64,000 nt of DNA, from NCBI RefSeq assembly GCF_009695875.1, contig NZ_VUNC01000001.1, positions 248,001 to 312,000 on the forward strand, read 5' to 3'. The DNA comes from Olsenella porci (GTDB lineage: Bacteria; Actinomycetota; Coriobacteriia; Coriobacteriales; Atopobiaceae). The notes under the pieces were generated by a model, which made no database searches, was not told where the DNA came from, and saw only the letters and a list, made by a program, of their open reading frames with translations. The position numbers and the translations under genes were made by a program. Of the stretch, positions 42,414-51,636 are shown in pieces; within the stretch, counting starts at the first letter, position 1, and every line of letters begins with the position of its first letter.

Positions 42414-43490
42414 CTAGGCGTCGAGGACAACCGGCTCGTGCGTGTAGTGGTTGAGGACCTCGCACCCGTTCTCGGTCACGATCACCAGGTCCTCGATGCG
42501 CACGCCCATGTCGTTGGGCAGGTAGATTCCCGGCTCGATGGAGAAGCACTGCCCTGGGCGCACGGGCTCGTCGTGCGTGGCGCTCACGTCGCCGGGCTCG
42601 TGGTCGGTGAGACCGATCTGGTGCCCCAGACGATGGGTGAAATAGGGGCCAAAGCCCGCGTCCTCGATGACCTTTCGGGCAGTGAGGTCTATCTGGGCAA
42701 AGGTGACGCCCGGACGCACGATCTTCTCTGCGGCCTCGTTTGCCCTGCGGACCGTGTCGTACACCTCAAGCTGGTGCGCCGTGGGCTCTGCCGTGAAGAA
42801 CGTCCTGGTCATGTCGGAGCAGTACCAGTCCTGCTTGCAGCCCGCGTCAAAGAGGACCATGTCACCCTTGGCAAGGGGCGTCTGGTCGGGCTCGTGGTGC
42901 GGGTCGGCGGCGTGCGCGCCGTAGCTGACGATTGGCGGGAACGAGTGGTCCTGCGCCCCCAGCGAGCGGTACTCGCCCAGCAGGCCCTCGGCGATAGAGA
43001 GTTCGGTGGCTCCCTCCCTCACCTGCGAGGCGAGCCAGGACATCGCGAGGTCGTTGGTCAGGCTCGCCTGGCGCATCAGGCCCTGCTCGCGGTCGTCCTT
43101 GATGGAGCGCGCGTCATCCACCGCCTTCGAGGCGAGCCTGAAGCCGCTCGCGGCCTTGGAGTCCATGAGGGGCACGAGCCAACGCGCTGCAAGGTCCTTG
43201 TCCACCCCGAGCTCGGAGTTGGGGTCGCAGTTCGCCGCCACCAGGGGAATGGGGTCCTCGGTGTCGTCAAAGGTCACCAGCCGGTCCGCCGCGCCCGTGG
43301 CGTCGGGGAAGAGGCGGTTGGCAAACAGGACGGAGCCGCTCGGGCTCAGGTATAGCGCCAGGAAGCGCTCCAGGGGTTCCGTGTAGTAGCCCGTCAGGTA
43401 CCAAATGGACAGCGGGTCACAGAATAGTGCCTGTGAGAGCCCCATCTGCCGTAGGTTGTCCATCACACGTTTGCTGCGTCCCTGGTCCAT
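42414..43490 (-). CDS. M24-family Xaa-Pro aminopeptidase
   Basis: This 358-residue metallopeptidase removes N-terminal residues preceding proline. The N-terminal creatinase-like domain (SIWYLTGYYTEPLERFLAL) precedes the pita-bread catalytic domain. The five dimetal ligands are seen in LFDAGCK (Asp), CSDMTRTF (Asp), THRLGHQIG (His), FSIEPGIY (Glu) and VRIEDLV (Glu). The start at 43490 follows GAGGGAGAGG. It is convergent with nagB and divergent from veg. It likely cooperates with the other peptidases in the window in peptide use, though it is not linked to them by operon. Confidence 0.93.
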   Translation of the reverse strand: MDQGRSKRVMDNLRQMGLSQALFCDPLSIWYLTGYYTEPLERFLALYLSPSGSVLFANRLFPDATGAADRLVTFDDTEDPIPLVAANCDPNSELGVDKDLAARWLVPLMDSKAASGFRLASKAVDDARSIKDDREQGLMRQASLTNDLAMSWLASQVREGATELSIAEGLLGEYRSLGAQDHSFPPIVSYGAHAADPHHEPDQTPLAKGDMVLFDAGCKQDWYCSDMTRTFFTAEPTAHQLEVYDTVRRANEAAEKIVRPGVTFAQIDLTARKVIEDAGFGPYFTHRLGHQIGLTDHEPGDVSATHDEPVRPGQCFSIEPGIYLPNDMGVRIEDLVIVTENGCEVLNHYTHEPVVLDA

Positions 43491-45147: not shown

Positions 45148-45981
45148 ATGCGTATCGAGCTTTCGACCTGGCCATGCGTCCAGGCATACTTTTCCAGCGG
45201 CGAGGATCTCGTGGTCCTGGCGGTCGGTAGCACCGAGGAGCATGGGAGGCACAACCCACTGGGAACGGATACCTTGGCCCCAAACCTCCTGCTTGACATC
45301 ATCGAGCGAGACCTTGCCGAGAGGGGCGACCCCGATGTCCTCGTGGCGCCGACCATTCCCTATGGGAACGCAGACGACCTGGTTGGGTTCCCCGGGACCC
45401 TCTCGATTGGATATGACCTGCTGATGCGGCTGGCGCAGCGCATCACGGACCAGCTCTACGACTACGGGGCACGACGCTTCCTCGTAATCAACGGCCACGG
45501 CCCCAACATCAAGCCCCTCTCTGCGGTTTGCGAGGGACTCAACCGGAGGGGGTGCCTTGCGGCACTCGCCAACTGGTGGCTTATGGCGGGGGAGCTTAAC
45601 CCCGTCTGGGGTGGCGGCCATGGCGGAGCGGAGGAGACAGCGGCGGTCATGGCGGTGGACCCGGCTCTCGTCGATCGGTCGGCTCTCGGGCCCATGGACC
45701 TTGCAAACGACGTCTCGGACGAGCTGCCAACTGACGGTTGGGACAACGTGCTCTACAAGGGGGCGCACGTCGCGTTCCCGCGGGACGCCTGCCGCTATGC
45801 CGGCAACGGCTGGATTGGCCCGGACGATCCGTCGGGCGCCGACCCCGAGTGGGGTCGCCAGATGATGGAGGGCGTGGGGTCCTATCTCGCGGACTTCATC
45901 GGGGCAATGAGGCGTGCGCCTCTCCCGCAGCCAATGCCCATCAGAACGGTCGCCGCCTTTGGGCGCAAGGCGGGCGAGTAG
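45148..45981 (+). CDS. Creatininase-family amidohydrolase, paralogue 1
   Basis: This 277-residue zinc-dependent hydrolase of the creatininase/MftE fold has metal ligands as in the family: Glu and His in GSTEEHGRHNPLGTD (with the following Asp), His in NGHGPNIKP and Glu in GGGHGGAEET. AGGGGAG precedes the ATG. Characterised members open cyclic amides (creatinine), deformylate (FAPy-type) or cleave a modified peptide (MftE). It opens a plus-strand run with an M42 peptidase, an S33 peptidase and a second creatininase; no creatine or mycofactocin genes are nearby. The substrate is probably a small amide or peptide; I cannot say which. Confidence 0.9.
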   Translation: MRIELSTWPCVQAYFSSGEDLVVLAVGSTEEHGRHNPLGTDTLAPNLLLDIIERDLAERGDPDVLVAPTIPYGNADDLVGFPGTLSIGYDLLMRLAQRITDQLYDYGARRFLVINGHGPNIKPLSAVCEGLNRRGCLAALANWWLMAGELNPVWGGGHGGAEETAAVMAVDPALVDRSALGPMDLANDVSDELPTDGWDNVLYKGAHVAFPRDACRYAGNGWIGPDDPSGADPEWGRQMMEGVGSYLADFIGAMRRAPLPQPMPIRTVAAFGRKAGE

Positions 45982-46045
45982 GCGAGAGGGTCCAGCGCGA
46001 GGAGCCCTGGCTTTGTCCCGGCTAATGGGAGGAATCGGAGAAACG

Positions 46046-47119
46046 ATGGAATTTGATCGAAACGAGACGGTCGACCTGCTTGGGAGCCTGAGCAACGCGA
46101 AGTCGCCCTCGGGCTTCGAGGACGAGACGGTTTGGGTGGTGCGCGAATTCTGCGAGGGCTGGGCGGACGTCCAGACTAACTCGCTCATGGACGCGCTCAT
46201 CACCCCCAACAACTTCACGGGGGAGAAGCCCGTGGTCATGCTTGACGCCCACGGCGACGAGGTCGGCGGGATGGTTCGCTCGATCCGCTCCAACGGAACG
46301 ATGTCCTTTGTGGAGCTCGGTCGGTTCTCTCCCCACGTGCTTGCCGGCCAGGATGTGCTCGTGAGGGGCACGGATGGGGTCTGGCGCCACGGCGTGGTGG
46401 GCATCAAGCCACCACATTTCATGTCAAAGGCAGAGGCTGCCGCCGGGGACAGCCCCATGATCCTCGACGTCGGCGCATCCTCAAAGGAAGAGGCAATCGA
46501 GAAGTTTCACATGGGTATGGGCGAGCCCATGGTTCCCGCCACCAAGTTCCAGTACGACAACGAGACGGGCGTGGCCTTTGGCAAGGGCTTCGACTGCCGA
46601 GCCGGCGTGGCGGCAGAGCTGCTTGCGCTCCGCGAGCTTTCCCGTCGCGCCGACCTCCCGTTTGACGTCGTCGCGAGCGTCTCTGCTATGGAGGAGGTGG
46701 GCGAGAGGGGTGTCGCCGCGGCGGTGAGGCATTTCAACCCACAGATTGCGTTCATGTTCGAGGGGTGCCCCGCCGATGACACCTTCCAGGCGCCCGACGA
46801 CATCCAGACGGCGCTGCGCCATGGGCCGATGTTTCGCTACTTCGACGTGTGCATGATCACGAACCCGCGCTACCAGCGCTTCGTGCTCAAGTGCGCCGAG
46901 GACGCAGGGCTCACGTGCCAGACGAGCGTGCGCGAGGGCGGTGGAACCGACGGTGGCCCCACCCATATGATGGACGTCCCCAGCGTGGTCGCAGGGGTCC
47001 CTTGCCGCTACGTGCATGCGGGGACGGCCATCTGCGCGCTCGACGACGTGGAGGAGACGGCGCGAGTTGCCGTGGAGGTCGTCTCGCGCTTTACGCAGGA
47101 GATTGTCCAGGGGTTCTAG
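46046..47119 (+). CDS. M42-family aminopeptidase
   Basis: This 357-residue dinuclear metallo-aminopeptidase belongs to the TET/FrvX/SgcX group. Metal and catalytic residues are seen in LDAHGDEVGGM (His, Asp), KGFDCRAGV (bridging Asp), SAMEEVGERG (catalytic Glu and ligand) and the late GPTHMMDVPSVV (His). The family's dodecamer domain (residues ~70-160) is present. ATG 46046 follows GGAG; an alternative ATG at 46025 is possible. It lies 64 nt after creatininase 1 and 19 nt before the S33 gene, so it is likely co-transcribed. It would trim N-terminal residues from short peptides. Confidence 0.92.
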   Translation: MEFDRNETVDLLGSLSNAKSPSGFEDETVWVVREFCEGWADVQTNSLMDALITPNNFTGEKPVVMLDAHGDEVGGMVRSIRSNGTMSFVELGRFSPHVLAGQDVLVRGTDGVWRHGVVGIKPPHFMSKAEAAAGDSPMILDVGASSKEEAIEKFHMGMGEPMVPATKFQYDNETGVAFGKGFDCRAGVAAELLALRELSRRADLPFDVVASVSAMEEVGERGVAAAVRHFNPQIAFMFEGCPADDTFQAPDDIQTALRHGPMFRYFDVCMITNPRYQRFVLKCAEDAGLTCQTSVREGGGTDGGPTHMMDVPSVVAGVPCRYVHAGTAICALDDVEETARVAVEVVSRFTQEIVQGF

Positions 47120-47138
47120 GGGCGTGAGGAGAAGGAAG

Positions 47139-48029
47139 ATGTCTCTTAAGGTCCAGGAGGGGTACATCCCCTTCGCAGGCTACAAGACCTACTACCGCAT
47201 CGTGGGCGAGTGTGACACGGGGAGGCTGCCCATCCTCGCCCTCCACGGAGGGCCCGGCTCGGCACACTACTACGTGACCTCCCTCGACGACATTGCAGAG
47301 AGGTACGGTCGCGCCGTCATCTACTACGACCAGATGAGCTGCGGCAAGTCAAAGTCTCCCGCCCTCCCCGACCAGTGGAGCGCGGAGTTCTTTGAGGACG
47401 AGCTCAGGGTCGTGCGCCGCGAGCTCGGGCTCGATCGCATCCACCTGTGGGGTCACTCCTGGGGCGGGATGCTTGCCATGCAGTATGCAACGCATCGCCC
47501 CGCCGGCATCGCGTCCATGGTCGTCGCGAGCGGCCCCGCATCCCTCGACCTGTGGCTTGAGGAGGCGAATCGCCTTCGCGGCTATCTGCCCATCGATATG
47601 CAGAAGGCCCTTGTCCAGGCGGACGAGGATGGCGACTACGAGCGACCCGAGGTCAAGGCGGCAAGTGACGAGTACTACCGTCGGCACGTGTGCAAGGTGA
47701 GTGCGGAGGACGAGGACCCCAAGCTCAGGCGTCCCAAGGACGAGCCCGGCAAGGAGTGCTACCACTTCATGCAGGGGATGAGCGAGTTCGTGGTTACGGG
47801 GAAGCTCTCTCACTGGGACATCACCGACGACCTGCATCGCATCTCGATTCCAACCCTGTTCACGTCAGGTGAGGCGGACGAGTGCACCCCTTACATTGCC
47901 AAGCAGGTGGTCGACAGGATCCCCGGCTGCGAATGGCACCTCTTCAGGGGAGGCACCCACTGCGTCCACTCGGAGCAGCCCCAGGCCTACAACGACGTGG
48001 TCGAGGAGTTCGTGGAGCGTCACGAGTAG
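47139..48029 (+). CDS. Proline iminopeptidase-like S33 alpha/beta-hydrolase
   Basis: This 296-residue serine hydrolase has the oxyanion segment LALHGGPGSAHYY, nucleophile Ser107 in LWGHSWGGMLA, a cap domain, Asp in TSGEADECTP and His in GGTHCVHSE. This is the S33 prolyl aminopeptidase/tricorn-interacting factor F1 pattern. The start at 47139 sits behind GAGGAGAAGGA, and the next gene begins 9 nt after its stop. In this operon it would remove N-terminal Pro (or release amino acids from small amides) next to an M42 aminopeptidase and two creatininase homologues. Confidence 0.9.
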   Translation: MSLKVQEGYIPFAGYKTYYRIVGECDTGRLPILALHGGPGSAHYYVTSLDDIAERYGRAVIYYDQMSCGKSKSPALPDQWSAEFFEDELRVVRRELGLDRIHLWGHSWGGMLAMQYATHRPAGIASMVVASGPASLDLWLEEANRLRGYLPIDMQKALVQADEDGDYERPEVKAASDEYYRRHVCKVSAEDEDPKLRRPKDEPGKECYHFMQGMSEFVVTGKLSHWDITDDLHRISIPTLFTSGEADECTPYIAKQVVDRIPGCEWHLFRGGTHCVHSEQPQAYNDVVEEFVERHE

Positions 48030-48038
48030 GGAGGCAGC

Positions 48039-48818
48039 ATGTTCTTGGAGAGAAGCACGTGGCCCCATGTGGAGGAGTACCTCTCCCGGCGCGACCTTGT
48101 CGTCCTCGGCTTTGGAAGCACCGAGAACCATGGGCGGCACAATCCCCTGGGCACCGACTGGATGGCGCCGCAAAGGATTCTCGAGCTTCTGGACGAGAGG
48201 CGCCCGGACGTCCTGGTTGGGCCAACCCTCAAGCTGGGGTCCGCCGACCACTTCATCGACTATCCCGGGACCCTCTCGCTTGGCGACGAGCTGCTCTATC
48301 AGGTTGCCAAGCGGATATGCTCCCAGCTGCGGCACTATGGGGTGCGTCACTTCGTCTTCGTCAACGGCCATGGGGGCAACGCCAAGTCGCTGACGAGGGT
48401 CGGCTACGAGCTCAATGACGCGGGATGCCAGGTGGCGCTGGTCAACTGGTGGAAGCTCGCCGGGCAGCTCGACCCCAAATGGGGCGGTGGCCATGGAGGG
48501 GCGCAGGAGACGTCTGCCAACCTGTGGATTGACCCCTCGGCGGTTGACCTCGACGCAGTTGCGCCCATGGACCTCGTGGACGACGGCGGGGACGCGCTCA
48601 AGACGTTGGGGTTTGACTCCGTCGAGTTCGAGGGTCTCACCCCGACCCTGCTGCGCCGCGCCCGCCGCTATGCGTCAAACGGCTGGATCGGGCCGGATGA
48701 CCCATCGGAGGCGAGCGCGGAGTGGGGTAGGGACATGCTCACGGCCATGGCTGACTGGCTCGCCGACTTCGTCGACGCGTTTGCGGAGTCCCCACTGCCA
48801 GACCCAATCGAGCGCTGA
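48039..48818 (+). CDS. Creatininase-family amidohydrolase, paralogue 2
   Basis: This 259-residue relative of the genes at 45148 and 50821 keeps the ligand pattern: GSTENHGRHNPLGTD, NGHGGNAKS and GGGHGGAQETS. The second position of the first motif is Asn (E-N-H), against Glu in paralogue 1 (E-E-H) and Cys in paralogue 3 (E-C-H). Since the metal-ligand Glu and His flank it, this may tune the site. The C-terminus shares NGWIGPDDPS with paralogue 1, absent in paralogue 3. It lies 9 nt after the S33 gene and is the last gene of the run before a strong hairpin. Confidence 0.9.
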   Translation: MFLERSTWPHVEEYLSRRDLVVLGFGSTENHGRHNPLGTDWMAPQRILELLDERRPDVLVGPTLKLGSADHFIDYPGTLSLGDELLYQVAKRICSQLRHYGVRHFVFVNGHGGNAKSLTRVGYELNDAGCQVALVNWWKLAGQLDPKWGGGHGGAQETSANLWIDPSAVDLDAVAPMDLVDDGGDALKTLGFDSVEFEGLTPTLLRRARRYASNGWIGPDDPSEASAEWGRDMLTAMADWLADFVDAFAESPLPDPIER

Positions 48819-48838
48819 CCTTTTCGCCTGGCGATGAC

Positions 48839-48876
48839 AGCGCGCCCCGGAGGCCATGTGGCGTCCGGGGCGCGCT
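48839..48876. terminator. Bidirectional terminator
   Basis: Perfect 13-bp stem AGCGCGCCCCGGA / TCCGGGGCGCGCT with a 12-nt loop, then CTTCTCT. It lies between convergent creatininase 2 and the binding-protein gene. Confidence 0.75.
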
Positions 48877-48898
48877 CTTCTCTCCCCTCCTGGGGACT

Positions 48899-50563
48899 CT
48901 ATGCCTTCTTTGCGGAGTGGAGCTCGGGGCAGCGTGCCGCGTCAACGATTACGTTGGTGAAGTTCTTGGAGCAGACCTTGCTCAGGCCCTTGTGGATGAT
49001 GGGGATGATGGGCATGTCCTCGGCTGCGATCGCGTCAGCCTCGTGCATGAGCTCGATGCGCTTGTCCTCGTCCACGGTCTTGCGCGCCTCGTCGAGCTTG
49101 GCGTCAAACTTGCTGCTGGAGTAGTGGGACACGTTGTCGCCCACCCCGGTGTACATGAGGGGCTGGAGGAAGTTGTCCATGATGGGGTAGTCGGCGGTCC
49201 ACCCGCGCGATCCCAGCTGGAACGTACCGTCGGTGTACTTCGTGAGCATCGAGGCGTACTCCATCTGGTCGATCGTCACGGTGATGCCGACCGCCTTCCA
49301 GTCGTTGATCATCATCGTGAACTCGTCCGTGGAGCTCGAGGACGACACCATGAAGTCGATCTTGATCCCACGGTCTCCGCTGGAGTCAGCCTTATAACCT
49401 GCCTCGTCCAGCAGCTTCTCGGCCTTGTCCTTGTCGTAGGCGGTATAGGCCCATGTGCTCTCATCGTTCCCCCTGATGCCCGGGGGAACGATGTCTCCGG
49501 CGGGCTTTGCCGTGCCCTCGTAGAGCGTGTCGCAGATCTTCTGGCGGTTGAGGGCCAGGGACATGGCCTGGCGCACCTTCACGTTCGAGAGGACCTCGTC
49601 GTTCACGTTGTAGGCAAGATACTCCGTGTACAGGACCTCGCCCGTGAGGGTCTGGTTGCCCGGGGTTGCGGTGAAGCCGTCCTTGGAGGTGCCGTAGGAA
49701 CCCTCGGTCTCCTTGATGCGGCCAGTGGGGATGTCGCACACGTCGAGGTTGCCTGCCTCGAACTCGCGGAACGCGGTATCCGCGTCCTTCTGGATCGAGA
49801 AGTTGACCCCGTCGACGCTTGCCGTGTTGGGACCGGCATAGTCGTCAAAGCGCTTGAGGTTGATGTACTGGTCGTCCTTCCACGTGCCGTCCATCTTGAA
49901 GGGACCGTTGCCTACCGGGGCCTTGGTGTAGGCGGCAAAGTCCTTCTTCGCGCAGTCTGGGATGGGCGAGAGGGGCGTGCACGACGTGACGTAGGGGAAG
50001 TCGGCGTACGGGGCGCTCAGCTCTACCTTCAGCGTGTAGTCATCCGGGCAGGTGACCCCGGCAAGCTCGGTTGCCTTGCCGTTGATCATGTCGTCGTACC
50101 CCTTGACGAGCTGGAGGTGATACGAGACGACGGACGGGGCCGAGCCCGCCTTGGGGTTGCAGAGGCGCTCCCATCCGTACTTGAACGACTTCGCGGTGAC
50201 GTCGGTTCCGTCGTGGAACTTCAGCCCCTTGCGGATCTTGAAGGTCCACGTGTCTGCGGAGTCGTTGGACTCCCAGGACTCGGCAGAGAGGCCCTCGAGC
50301 TTCTCGGTCGAGAAGTTGAAGATGGTGAGGGGGTCAAACAGCTGGTACGAAACGGCAACGCCGTTGAACTCCTCGATGTCGTAGGGGTCGATGCTCGTGG
50401 GGTTCGAGATGTAGTACTTCATCGTTCCGCCCGTTGAACCGCCGGTGCTGTCGGAGGCACCCGTCCCCTTCTTTCCACATGCAGTGAGGCCCGCGATGGC
50501 GGCGAGTCCCGCCGAGCCCTTGAGGAACGTTCGCCTTGTAAAGCTAGTGCCGCTTGCTCCCAT
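48899..50563 (-). CDS. Peptide-type ABC transporter substrate-binding lipoprotein with Tat leader
   Basis: This 554-residue family 5 (DppA/OppA) binding protein has the twin-arginine motif TRRTFLKG at residues 9-16, followed by a hydrophobic helix and lipobox LTAC with Cys29, so it is a Tat-exported lipoprotein. The mature part has the family's KIRKGLKFHDGTDVTAKSFKYGWERL, later FRRDPYA-type strands and DWKAVGITVTIDQMEYASML. The start at 50563 follows GGGAGG. No permease or ATPase genes are nearby, so it must share components encoded elsewhere. Its placement between creatininase paralogues suggests it delivers the peptide or amide that they process. Confidence 0.92.
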   Translation of the reverse strand: MGASGTSFTRRTFLKGSAGLAAIAGLTACGKKGTGASDSTGGSTGGTMKYYISNPTSIDPYDIEEFNGVAVSYQLFDPLTIFNFSTEKLEGLSAESWESNDSADTWTFKIRKGLKFHDGTDVTAKSFKYGWERLCNPKAGSAPSVVSYHLQLVKGYDDMINGKATELAGVTCPDDYTLKVELSAPYADFPYVTSCTPLSPIPDCAKKDFAAYTKAPVGNGPFKMDGTWKDDQYINLKRFDDYAGPNTASVDGVNFSIQKDADTAFREFEAGNLDVCDIPTGRIKETEGSYGTSKDGFTATPGNQTLTGEVLYTEYLAYNVNDEVLSNVKVRQAMSLALNRQKICDTLYEGTAKPAGDIVPPGIRGNDESTWAYTAYDKDKAEKLLDEAGYKADSSGDRGIKIDFMVSSSSSTDEFTMMINDWKAVGITVTIDQMEYASMLTKYTDGTFQLGSRGWTADYPIMDNFLQPLMYTGVGDNVSHYSSSKFDAKLDEARKTVDEDKRIELMHEADAIAAEDMPIIPIIHKGLSKVCSKNFTNVIVDAARCPELHSAKKA

Positions 50564-50820
50564 AAAGCTACCTCCCGTATCCACCAAACTGCACCCTGAC
50601 GCAAGTCTGAACGGGTCCAAACTTGTTTACGGATGGTTGTACCAGTGAATACGGAGCAGTGGTGACACTGATGACAAACTCGATATGATGACGAAACAAT
50701 CCATTTATACATTTATTCCAGACGGCAGAATATCGCCGGCGAGCGGATGGCTTTGCGAGAAGGCGCTATCATCCACGGATGACGCGACGGCAGCCGACCG
50801 GCTGGAGAGAGGAGAGGCCC
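50564..50820. promoter_or_regulatory. Divergent promoter region, binding protein / creatininase 3
   Basis: This 257-bp region is AT-richer than its surroundings (50640-50740). A plus-strand -10 candidate TATCAT lies near 50767. A degenerate 24-bp repeat, CTTGTTTAC-GGATGG-TTGTACCAG at 50622-50645, recalls the GntR sites but the arms match at only 5 of 9 positions. No promoter can be fixed with confidence. Confidence 0.35.
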
Positions 50821-51636
50821 ATGCGCATGGACAGGAGCACCTGGACGCAGGTGAGGGACTACTTCGACGCTCATGACCTCGTGGTGATTGGGGTCGGCTC
50901 GACCGAGTGCCATGGACGCCACAATCCCCTGGGAACCGACACCATGGCGCCGGACGAGATCCTGAGGCAGGTCGAGGAGAGGGACGGGACATTCCTCATA
51001 GCCCCAACGCTGCCCTATGGCGCCACGGACGACCTGGTCGGGTATCCCGGGACCATCTCCCTTGGGGTGGAAGGGCTCGCAAGGGTCCTCCAGAGCATCA
51101 CCTCGCAGCTGTACGACTATGGGGCGCGGCGCTTCGTGTTCCTCAACGGGCACGGCGGCAACGTCAAGTCCATCTCGCAGGTTTCGATGGGGCTCAATGA
51201 TCGGGGCTGCATCGCCGCGATGGTCAATTGGTGGCGGGTCGCCCCTCAGATTGACCCGCGCTGGGGAGGCGGCCATGGGGGCGCAATGGAGACCTCGGCG
51301 AATCTGGCCATCGACCCCGACTCCGTCGACCTCTCCCAGGTGTGCGACGAGGGGCTCCTCCCAGACGTGGGGGACGACCTTCCCTCGACGGGCTGGTGCT
51401 CAGTTCGCTACCAGGGCGTGGATGTGGACGTCCCGCGACGGCTTGTGCGCTTTGCCAGCTCGGGTTGGGTTGCGGAGGGCTTTGACGACCACCCTCGGGA
51501 CTCATCGGCGGAGCTGGGCAGGCAGATGCTCGAGGGGACTGCCACCTGGCTCATCGGCTTTCTGCACACCCTCGAGGGTGAGAGGCTGCCAAAGCCCCTC
51601 GACCCGTCACGCGCAACCGAACACCTGGAGGGGTAG
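50821..51636 (+). CDS. Creatininase-family amidohydrolase, paralogue 3
   Basis: This 271-residue protein starts at ATG 50821 behind GAGAGGAGAGG. It has ligand motifs GSTECHGRHNPLGTD, NGHGGNVKS and GGGHGGAMETS. It is divergent from the binding-protein gene and shares its control region, tying the transporter component to a creatininase. Compared with its two relatives, the C-terminal third differs (FASSGWVAEGFDDHPRDSS), so substrate may differ. All three copies share the RSTW/LSTWP-type N-terminus, pointing to duplication within this lineage rather than separate arrival. Confidence 0.9.
   Translation: MRMDRSTWTQVRDYFDAHDLVVIGVGSTECHGRHNPLGTDTMAPDEILRQVEERDGTFLIAPTLPYGATDDLVGYPGTISLGVEGLARVLQSITSQLYDYGARRFVFLNGHGGNVKSISQVSMGLNDRGCIAAMVNWWRVAPQIDPRWGGGHGGAMETSANLAIDPDSVDLSQVCDEGLLPDVGDDLPSTGWCSVRYQGVDVDVPRRLVRFASSGWVAEGFDDHPRDSSAELGRQMLEGTATWLIGFLHTLEGERLPKPLDPSRATEHLEG

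What the first reader, a model, noticed from the sequence alone, without database searches (positions are those of the whole stretch)
45148..51636. Three creatininase-family paralogues with M42 and S33 peptidases and a peptide-type binding protein
Within 6.5 kb there are three diverged copies with all metal ligands kept (GSTExHGRHNPLGTD, NGHGxN, GGGHGGxxET), two aminopeptidases in the same run, and a Tat-lipoprotein DppA-like binding protein divergent from copy 3. No creatine, mycofactocin or riboflavin/F420 genes are nearby. The position between the Glu and His ligands differs (Glu, Asn, Cys), suggesting three substrates. Inference: a pathway that imports and dismantles cyclic or modified small peptides or amides, with creatininase homologues opening or deblocking and M42/S33 enzymes trimming.
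Basis: partly seen in the sequence, partly recalled or inferred. Interest (0 to 1): 0.72.

Follow-up and report, generated by a model that had tools for sequence, protein, structure and literature searches.

The report
Creatininase-like enzymes in peptide-uptake operon
Gut bacteria of three phyla keep an unstudied branch of creatininase-like metal hydrolases next to a peptide importer and peptide-cutting enzymes, and in one actinobacterial class the enzyme was triplicated; this points to an uncharacterised step in peptide breakdown, but the substrate is unknown.

Summary
The window carries three intact PF02633 (creatininase-family) genes, A, B and C, with an M42 aminopeptidase, an S33 proline iminopeptidase and a Tat-lipoprotein peptide-binding protein. 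They are the only PF02633 genes in this Coriobacteriia genome. Ten of 298 class members sampled carry the clade, each with exactly three copies within about 7 kb. A, B and C form three orthologue clades from one old triplication. Single-copy relatives in Bacillota, Spirochaetota and Propionibacteriaceae (43-49% identical) usually sit in a DppBCDF-binding protein-creatininase-M42 run. Of 36 carrier genomes, 29 have the transporter or its binding protein in the run and 29 have M42. This genome's own DppBCDF lies on another contig and is about 80% identical to the one next to the creatininases in Tractidigestivibacter.

It is not creatininase (Glu122 is Gly or Pro; scores far below cut-off), nor MftE or ArfB (below cut-off; no mycofactocin radical-SAM gene; own C-terminal block). 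Best reading: an uncharacterised PF02633 subfamily acting as intracellular amidohydrolase or peptidase on Dpp-imported short peptides. Whether the substrate is linear, cyclic or modified is unresolved.

The parts
45148..45981 (+). Creatininase-family hydrolase A (277 aa)
   Evidence: PF02633 1.4e-52; orthologue clade A, SH-aLRT 99
46046..47119 (+). M42 aminopeptidase (357 aa)
   Evidence: PF05343 2.1e-56 on the longer open frame; best solved relative 5ds0, 1.1e-52, catalytic residues aligned
47139..48029 (+). S33 proline iminopeptidase family hydrolase (296 aa)
   Evidence: TIGR01250 266 bits over cut-off 167.65; 3nwo 1.1e-66
48039..48818 (+). Creatininase-family hydrolase B (259 aa)
   Evidence: PF02633 1.4e-55; orthologue clade B, SH-aLRT 94
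48899..50563 (-). Tat-exported lipoprotein, OppA/DppA-type substrate-binding protein
   Evidence: PF00496 7e-88, TAT_signal; keeps the amine-binding Asp of OppA/DppA (GWTADYP)
50564..50820 (.). Divergent intergenic region between binding protein and copy C; two weak promoter-like matches on +
   Evidence: 2 found, 0.9 expected in the region scanned, so weak; no inverted repeat found
50821..51636 (+). Creatininase-family hydrolase C (271 aa)
   Evidence: PF02633 9e-53; orthologue clade C, SH-aLRT 99; AlphaFold2 pLDDT 96.5, creatininase fold

Best explanation
This is the enzymatic half of a peptide-utilisation system of gut bacteria. A Tat-exported lipoprotein of the OppA/DppA type (here 48899-50563) captures a short peptide or peptide-like amide outside and hands it to a Dpp-type ABC permease, which in this genome is encoded on another contig. 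In the cytoplasm the creatininase-family proteins A, B and C, metal-dependent amidohydrolases of an uncharacterised PF02633 subfamily, hydrolyse an amide bond that ordinary aminopeptidases cannot. The M42 aminopeptidase (plus S33 proline iminopeptidase here, M18 or M20 peptidases in relatives) breaks the product down to amino acids. An ancestral single enzyme was triplicated in Coriobacteriia and the copies diverged, probably to accept different residues. Shown: gene content, conserved linkage, triplication, intact ligand residues, predicted fold. Inferred: that the three act on the imported ligand, the bond cut, and the division of labour. Whether the substrate is a linear peptide (MftE-like peptidase action), a cyclic dipeptide or lactam, or a modified peptide is not decided.
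For: Linkage: in 36 genomes carrying the clade, 29 have the Dpp transporter or its binding protein in the run and 29 have M42, across Actinomycetota, Bacillota and Spirochaetota. Further peptidases beside it: M18, isoaspartyl dipeptidase (TIGR01975, 395 bits over cut-off 331), M20 enzymes, a second M42. Window genome: only two SBP_bac_5 genes, the one here and one heading SBP-DppBCDF at C9; that DppBCDF is about 79-82% identical to the one directly behind creatininase-M42 in Tractidigestivibacter. Exactly three copies in 10 of 10 carriers out of 298 Coriobacteriia; one copy in 16 of 16 genomes outside. Three orthologue clades. Profile most like MftE, a peptide-cleaving member (PMC10885120). 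Fold: creatininase, Foldseek E down to 4e-16.
Against: No substrate, activity or expression data. Some carriers have the gene without transporter or M42 nearby (L046 beside a beta-glucosidase-like gene and sugar-type ABC genes; L059 and L061 beside an adenosine deaminase-like gene; L054). The binding proteins are not one family: the Spirochaetota ones are GsiB-like and lack the amine-binding Asp, so the imported ligand may differ or be broad. In this genome the permease is unlinked.
Confidence: 0.62

Rival explanations
1. The enzymes specifically open cyclic dipeptides (diketopiperazines) or lactam-capped peptides, giving linear products for M42 and S33.
For: Creatininase itself hydrolyses a small cyclic amide. 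The clade keeps Trp at the positions of creatininase Trp154 and Trp174 by pairwise alignment. Two Clostridia loci have a DUF34/NIF3 gene directly after the creatininase; from memory, its E. coli homologue neighbours 5-oxoprolinase genes.
Against: The binding proteins of Coriobacteriia and of two Bacillota loci keep the OppA/DppA Asp that binds a free alpha-amino group. The nearest profile is MftE, which cuts a linear peptide. No cyclodipeptide or 5-oxoproline genes were seen in the runs.
Confidence: 0.22
2. They are ordinary creatininases (creatinine to creatine).
For: Same fold, and most creatininase metal and active-site positions are kept.
Against: TIGR04448 score 57-77 bits against cut-off 235. 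Glu122 is Gly or Pro in all. No creatinase or sarcosine pathway is linked; the linked genes are peptide genes.
Confidence: 0.03
3. They are formamidases or deformylases of the ArfB/BrbF type, or peptide-maturation proteases of the MftE type.
For: Same superfamily; the MftE profile is the best NCBIfam match (up to 104 bits for the window proteins); BrbF shows that a 'creatininase' can be a formamidase (PMC9478397).
Against: MftE score below cut-off 172; ArfB at most 34 bits against 180. No mycofactocin radical-SAM protein over cut-off in 18 carrier genomes. The MftE proteins aligned lack the clade's C-terminal R...GW block.
Confidence: 0.06
4. The neighbourhood reflects a general nitrogen-salvage cluster; the creatininases act on unrelated amides or imides and share only regulation with the peptide genes.
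For: A minority of loci have the gene without Dpp or M42 (L046, L054, L059, L061, L123); regulators differ between loci (RpiR, GntR, AraC).
Against: Direct adjacency to binding protein and M42 is conserved in three phyla with little else constant.
Confidence: 0.12

Closest known systems
Creatininase (creatinine amidohydrolase, EC 3.5.2.10; PDB 1j2t, 1q3k)
   Same: Fold; Glu34, His36, Asp45, His120, His178 and Glu183 positions kept; Trp154 and Trp174 positions kept in pairwise alignment
   Different: Glu122 replaced by Gly (Pro in A); about 25% identity; far below TIGR04448 cut-off; extra C-terminal block; peptide-gene context
MftE (mycofactocin peptidyl-dipeptidase, TIGR03964)
   Same: NGHGGN motif; best NCBIfam score; acts on a peptide bond
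   Different: Below cut-off; MftE lacks the W-GGHG segment and the C-terminal R...GW block; no mycofactocin radical-SAM gene over cut-off in carriers
ArfB / BrbF formamidases
   Same: Same superfamily (ArfB model matches weakly)
   Different: At most 34 bits against 180 for ArfB; no riboflavin context seen in the runs
IolN (3-dehydro-scyllo-inosose hydrolase, NF041098)
   Same: Same superfamily, partial match
   Different: 38-64 bits against cut-off 245
Dpp/Opp peptide-uptake operons with intracellular peptidases
   Same: Binding protein, two permeases, two ATPases, aminopeptidase
   Different: Addition of one to three PF02633 enzymes of unknown substrate

Membership tests
PF02633 creatininase superfamily | Pfam score over gathering cut-off and creatininase fold | tested here: met
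   179-189 bits against 31.3; Foldseek E 4e-16 to creatininases
PF02633 creatininase superfamily | Metal-ligand motifs E-x-H, D, NGH, H...E | tested here: met
   E29, H31, D40, H111, H152, E157 invariant in 36 sequences
True creatininase (TIGR04448) | Equivalog score over 235 bits | tested here: not met
   57-83 bits
True creatininase (TIGR04448) | Glu122 (NGHxEN) | tested here: not met
   Gly in B, C and the single copies, Pro in A
MftE (TIGR03964) | Equivalog score over 172 bits | tested here: not met
   86-116 bits
MftE (TIGR03964) | Co-occurring mycofactocin radical SAM MftC | tested here: not met
   0 of 18 carrier genomes over cut-off
ArfB formamidase (NF033501) | Equivalog score over 180 bits | tested here: not met
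   No match for A, B, C; 21-34 bits for relatives
Dpp/Opp peptide-uptake system | Family 5 binding protein with permeases B, C and ATPases D, F | tested here: met
   Complete in many relatives; in this genome split over two contigs
Dpp/Opp peptide-uptake system | Binding protein keeps the Asp that binds the ligand's free amino group | tested here: inconclusive
   Kept in the window protein, other Coriobacteriia and two Bacillota; absent in Spirochaetota
Peptide hydrolase acting on imported peptides | Measured activity | not testable with these tools
   Needs purified enzyme

The most novel reading that the evidence does not exclude
An undescribed PF02633 subfamily is a dedicated metalloamidohydrolase for a class of gut peptides that normal aminopeptidases cannot start on (cyclic dipeptides, lactam-capped or otherwise blocked peptides), triplicated into a specificity set in Coriobacteriia and spread as an operon across three phyla of gut bacteria.
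Probability: 0.25. Interest if true: 0.72.

Novelty: new variant of a known kind. Interest (0 to 1): 0.48.

Why it matters
Proteins annotated 'creatininase' in gut Coriobacteriia, Clostridia and spirochaetes of this clade are very probably misnamed: their conserved partners are a peptide importer and peptidases. If confirmed, this adds a new activity to the small set of experimentally known creatininase-family functions, gives a marker operon for a specific peptide niche in animal guts, and makes the triplication a clean case of enzyme diversification with single-copy relatives to compare.

Tried and rejected
Fused tandem creatininases: the long 'open frames' reported for some genomes are not fusions; stop codons separate the genes. 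A small minus-strand ORF between M18 and copy C in relatives looked like a conserved gene, but has no family match and lies antisense to a SecG-like gene, so it was dropped. Glu/Asn/Cys as a specificity marker: not fixed within orthologue groups. Clustering of class-separating positions near the metal ligands was tested and is not significant (1 of 4 sites, p 0.29), although position 156, next to ligand Glu157, is fixed as Glu, Gln, Met in A, B, C. The neighbouring M24/Creatinase_N protein as evidence of a creatine pathway: rejected (generic peptidase, not linked in relatives). Shared regulatory site between binding protein and copy C: no inverted repeat, promoter-like matches near chance. Literature: no paper found that links creatininase to diketopiperazines or peptide ABC transporters in the open library.

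Full report
Observation. Three PF02633 genes A (45148-45981), B (48039-48818) and C (50821-51636) are 51-53% identical and are the only PF02633 genes of the genome. A, M42, S33 and B run head to tail with gaps of 64, 19 and 9 nt, as an operon would. The binding protein is convergent with B and divergent from C. M42 aligns with intact metal ligands to solved M42 aminopeptidases. S33 passes the proline-iminopeptidase subfamily cut-off and is closest to solved proline iminopeptidases.

Distribution. In the family of this genome 17 of 140 genomes have a PF02633 match; two of these are other PF02633 branches and one is a sub-threshold match. With a profile of the clade, 10 of 298 genomes drawn from the class carry it. 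Every carrier has exactly three copies, within about 7 kb. Outside the class, 16 of 16 genomes reached through genome contigs have exactly one clade member. It is rare there: 4 of 391 in the class of an Oscillospiraceae carrier and 2 of 247 in the phylum of Breznakiella, each count including the genome the sample was centred on. Record titles name horse-feces, sheep-duodenum and similar isolates or MAGs; the general gut reading partly rests on my own knowledge of those accessions.

Phylogeny. A, B and C form three clades (SH-aLRT 99, 94, 99) inside one Coriobacteriia clade (98). Single-copy proteins of Bacillota, Spirochaetota and Propionibacteriaceae form the neighbouring group (support 90), and MftE, creatininase and other PF02633 fall far outside. 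This is a quick tree with long outgroup branches, so only the inner clades are relied on. One old triplication with retention of all three copies explains it.

Neighbourhood. A tblastn census of 36 carrier genomes shows the recurrent unit DppBCDF - binding protein - creatininase (1-3) - M42. The transporter or its binding protein is present in 29 of 36 and M42 in 29 of 36; five have neither nearby. Some short contigs cannot show the full run. Extra peptidases occur beside it: M18 in Tractidigestivibacter and relatives, isoaspartyl dipeptidase in L052, M20 enzymes in L051 and L123, a second M42 in L048, S33 in the window and two relatives. These recur in different phyla with different surroundings, so shared ancestry of a whole chromosome region does not explain it.

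This genome's transporter. The genome has only two SBP_bac_5 genes. The second heads a complete SBP-DppBCDF set on contig C9 (about 258.9-265.0 kb), shortly after the glycolytic block gap-pgk-tpiA (named from sequence by me). In Tractidigestivibacter the same block is followed by creatininase B, the orthologue of the window's binding protein, M18, creatininase C, creatininase A, M42 and then SBP-DppBCDF. The C9 permease and ATPase genes are about 79-82% identical to those. So the window cluster is the enzyme half of a system that is one run in relatives, found here at a separate place. That the window's orphan binding protein feeds the C9 permease is inference.

What the enzyme is. An AlphaFold2 model of C (mean pLDDT 96.5) matches creatininases and two uncharacterised PF02633 structures and nothing else well. 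Ligand residues are invariant. Creatininase Glu122 aligns with Gly (Pro in A). The E122Q, W154F and W174F mutant structures listed show these positions were studied as active-site residues; the functional role of Glu122 is from my knowledge of that literature. Scores against creatininase, MftE, ArfB and IolN equivalogs are all below cut-off, MftE being nearest. None of 18 carriers tested has the mycofactocin radical-SAM protein over cut-off. The clade has its own C-terminal block with invariant Arg206 and Gly-Trp 215-216, absent from the other PF02633 branches aligned. It is therefore filed as a distinct, uncharacterised PF02633 subfamily.

Specificity. There are too few such sites for significant clustering near the ligands, so three substrates remain a suggestion.

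Ligand. The binding protein aligns best with peptide binders (OppA, DppA). Its GWTADYP segment places an Asp where OppA and DppA have the Asp that holds the peptide N-terminus (that role is from my knowledge of OppA Asp419 and DppA Asp408). The Asp is kept in the Coriobacteriia proteins and in the two Bacillota ones aligned, but not in the GsiB-like proteins of Spirochaetota. This favours ligands with a free amine for this locus and weakens a purely cyclic-peptide model, but does not exclude it.

Conclusion. Peptide import plus dismantling is well supported by comparative evidence; the creatininase reaction itself is inferred. I put 0.62 on peptide-related amidohydrolase action of some kind and 0.22 on the specifically cyclic or lactam version.

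Noticed in passing
L055:12036-13151, L056:10857-11972, L060:10070-11065, L125:5786-6853: A roughly 330-370 aa protein follows M42 in several spirochaetes; the L055 copy has no Pfam or NCBIfam match, and its sequence (GSLRKWMG) looks like a PLP-dependent aminotransferase-fold enzyme. A homologue lies upstream in L050.
   Followed up: partly
L122:7154-7954, L124:6634-7405: A DUF34/NIF3 family gene directly follows the creatininase in two Clostridia (family match made on the L122 gene).
   Followed up: partly
L052:6777-7901: Isoaspartyl dipeptidase (TIGR01975 over cut-off) between an RpiR-type regulator and the binding protein of a creatininase-M42 run.
   Followed up: partly
L046:4288-11979: A clade member in a different setting: beta-glucosidase-like gene and sugar-type ABC genes upstream, Macro-domain protein downstream.
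   Followed up: no
L059 and L061: Propionibacteriaceae single-copy members beside adenosine deaminase-like and enoyl-CoA hydratase-like genes, without Dpp or M42.
   Followed up: no
L044:8306-10995: In this genome (G121) copy C is in two pieces with an internal gap and M42 is split over two frames; decay or assembly error.
   Followed up: no
window 42414-43490 (-): M24 peptidase with Creatinase_N domain close to the cluster; generic aminopeptidase P/prolidase type by score.
   Followed up: partly
L004 and L005: Two other genomes of the same family carry unrelated PF02633 branches (L004 with 222 bits).
   Followed up: no
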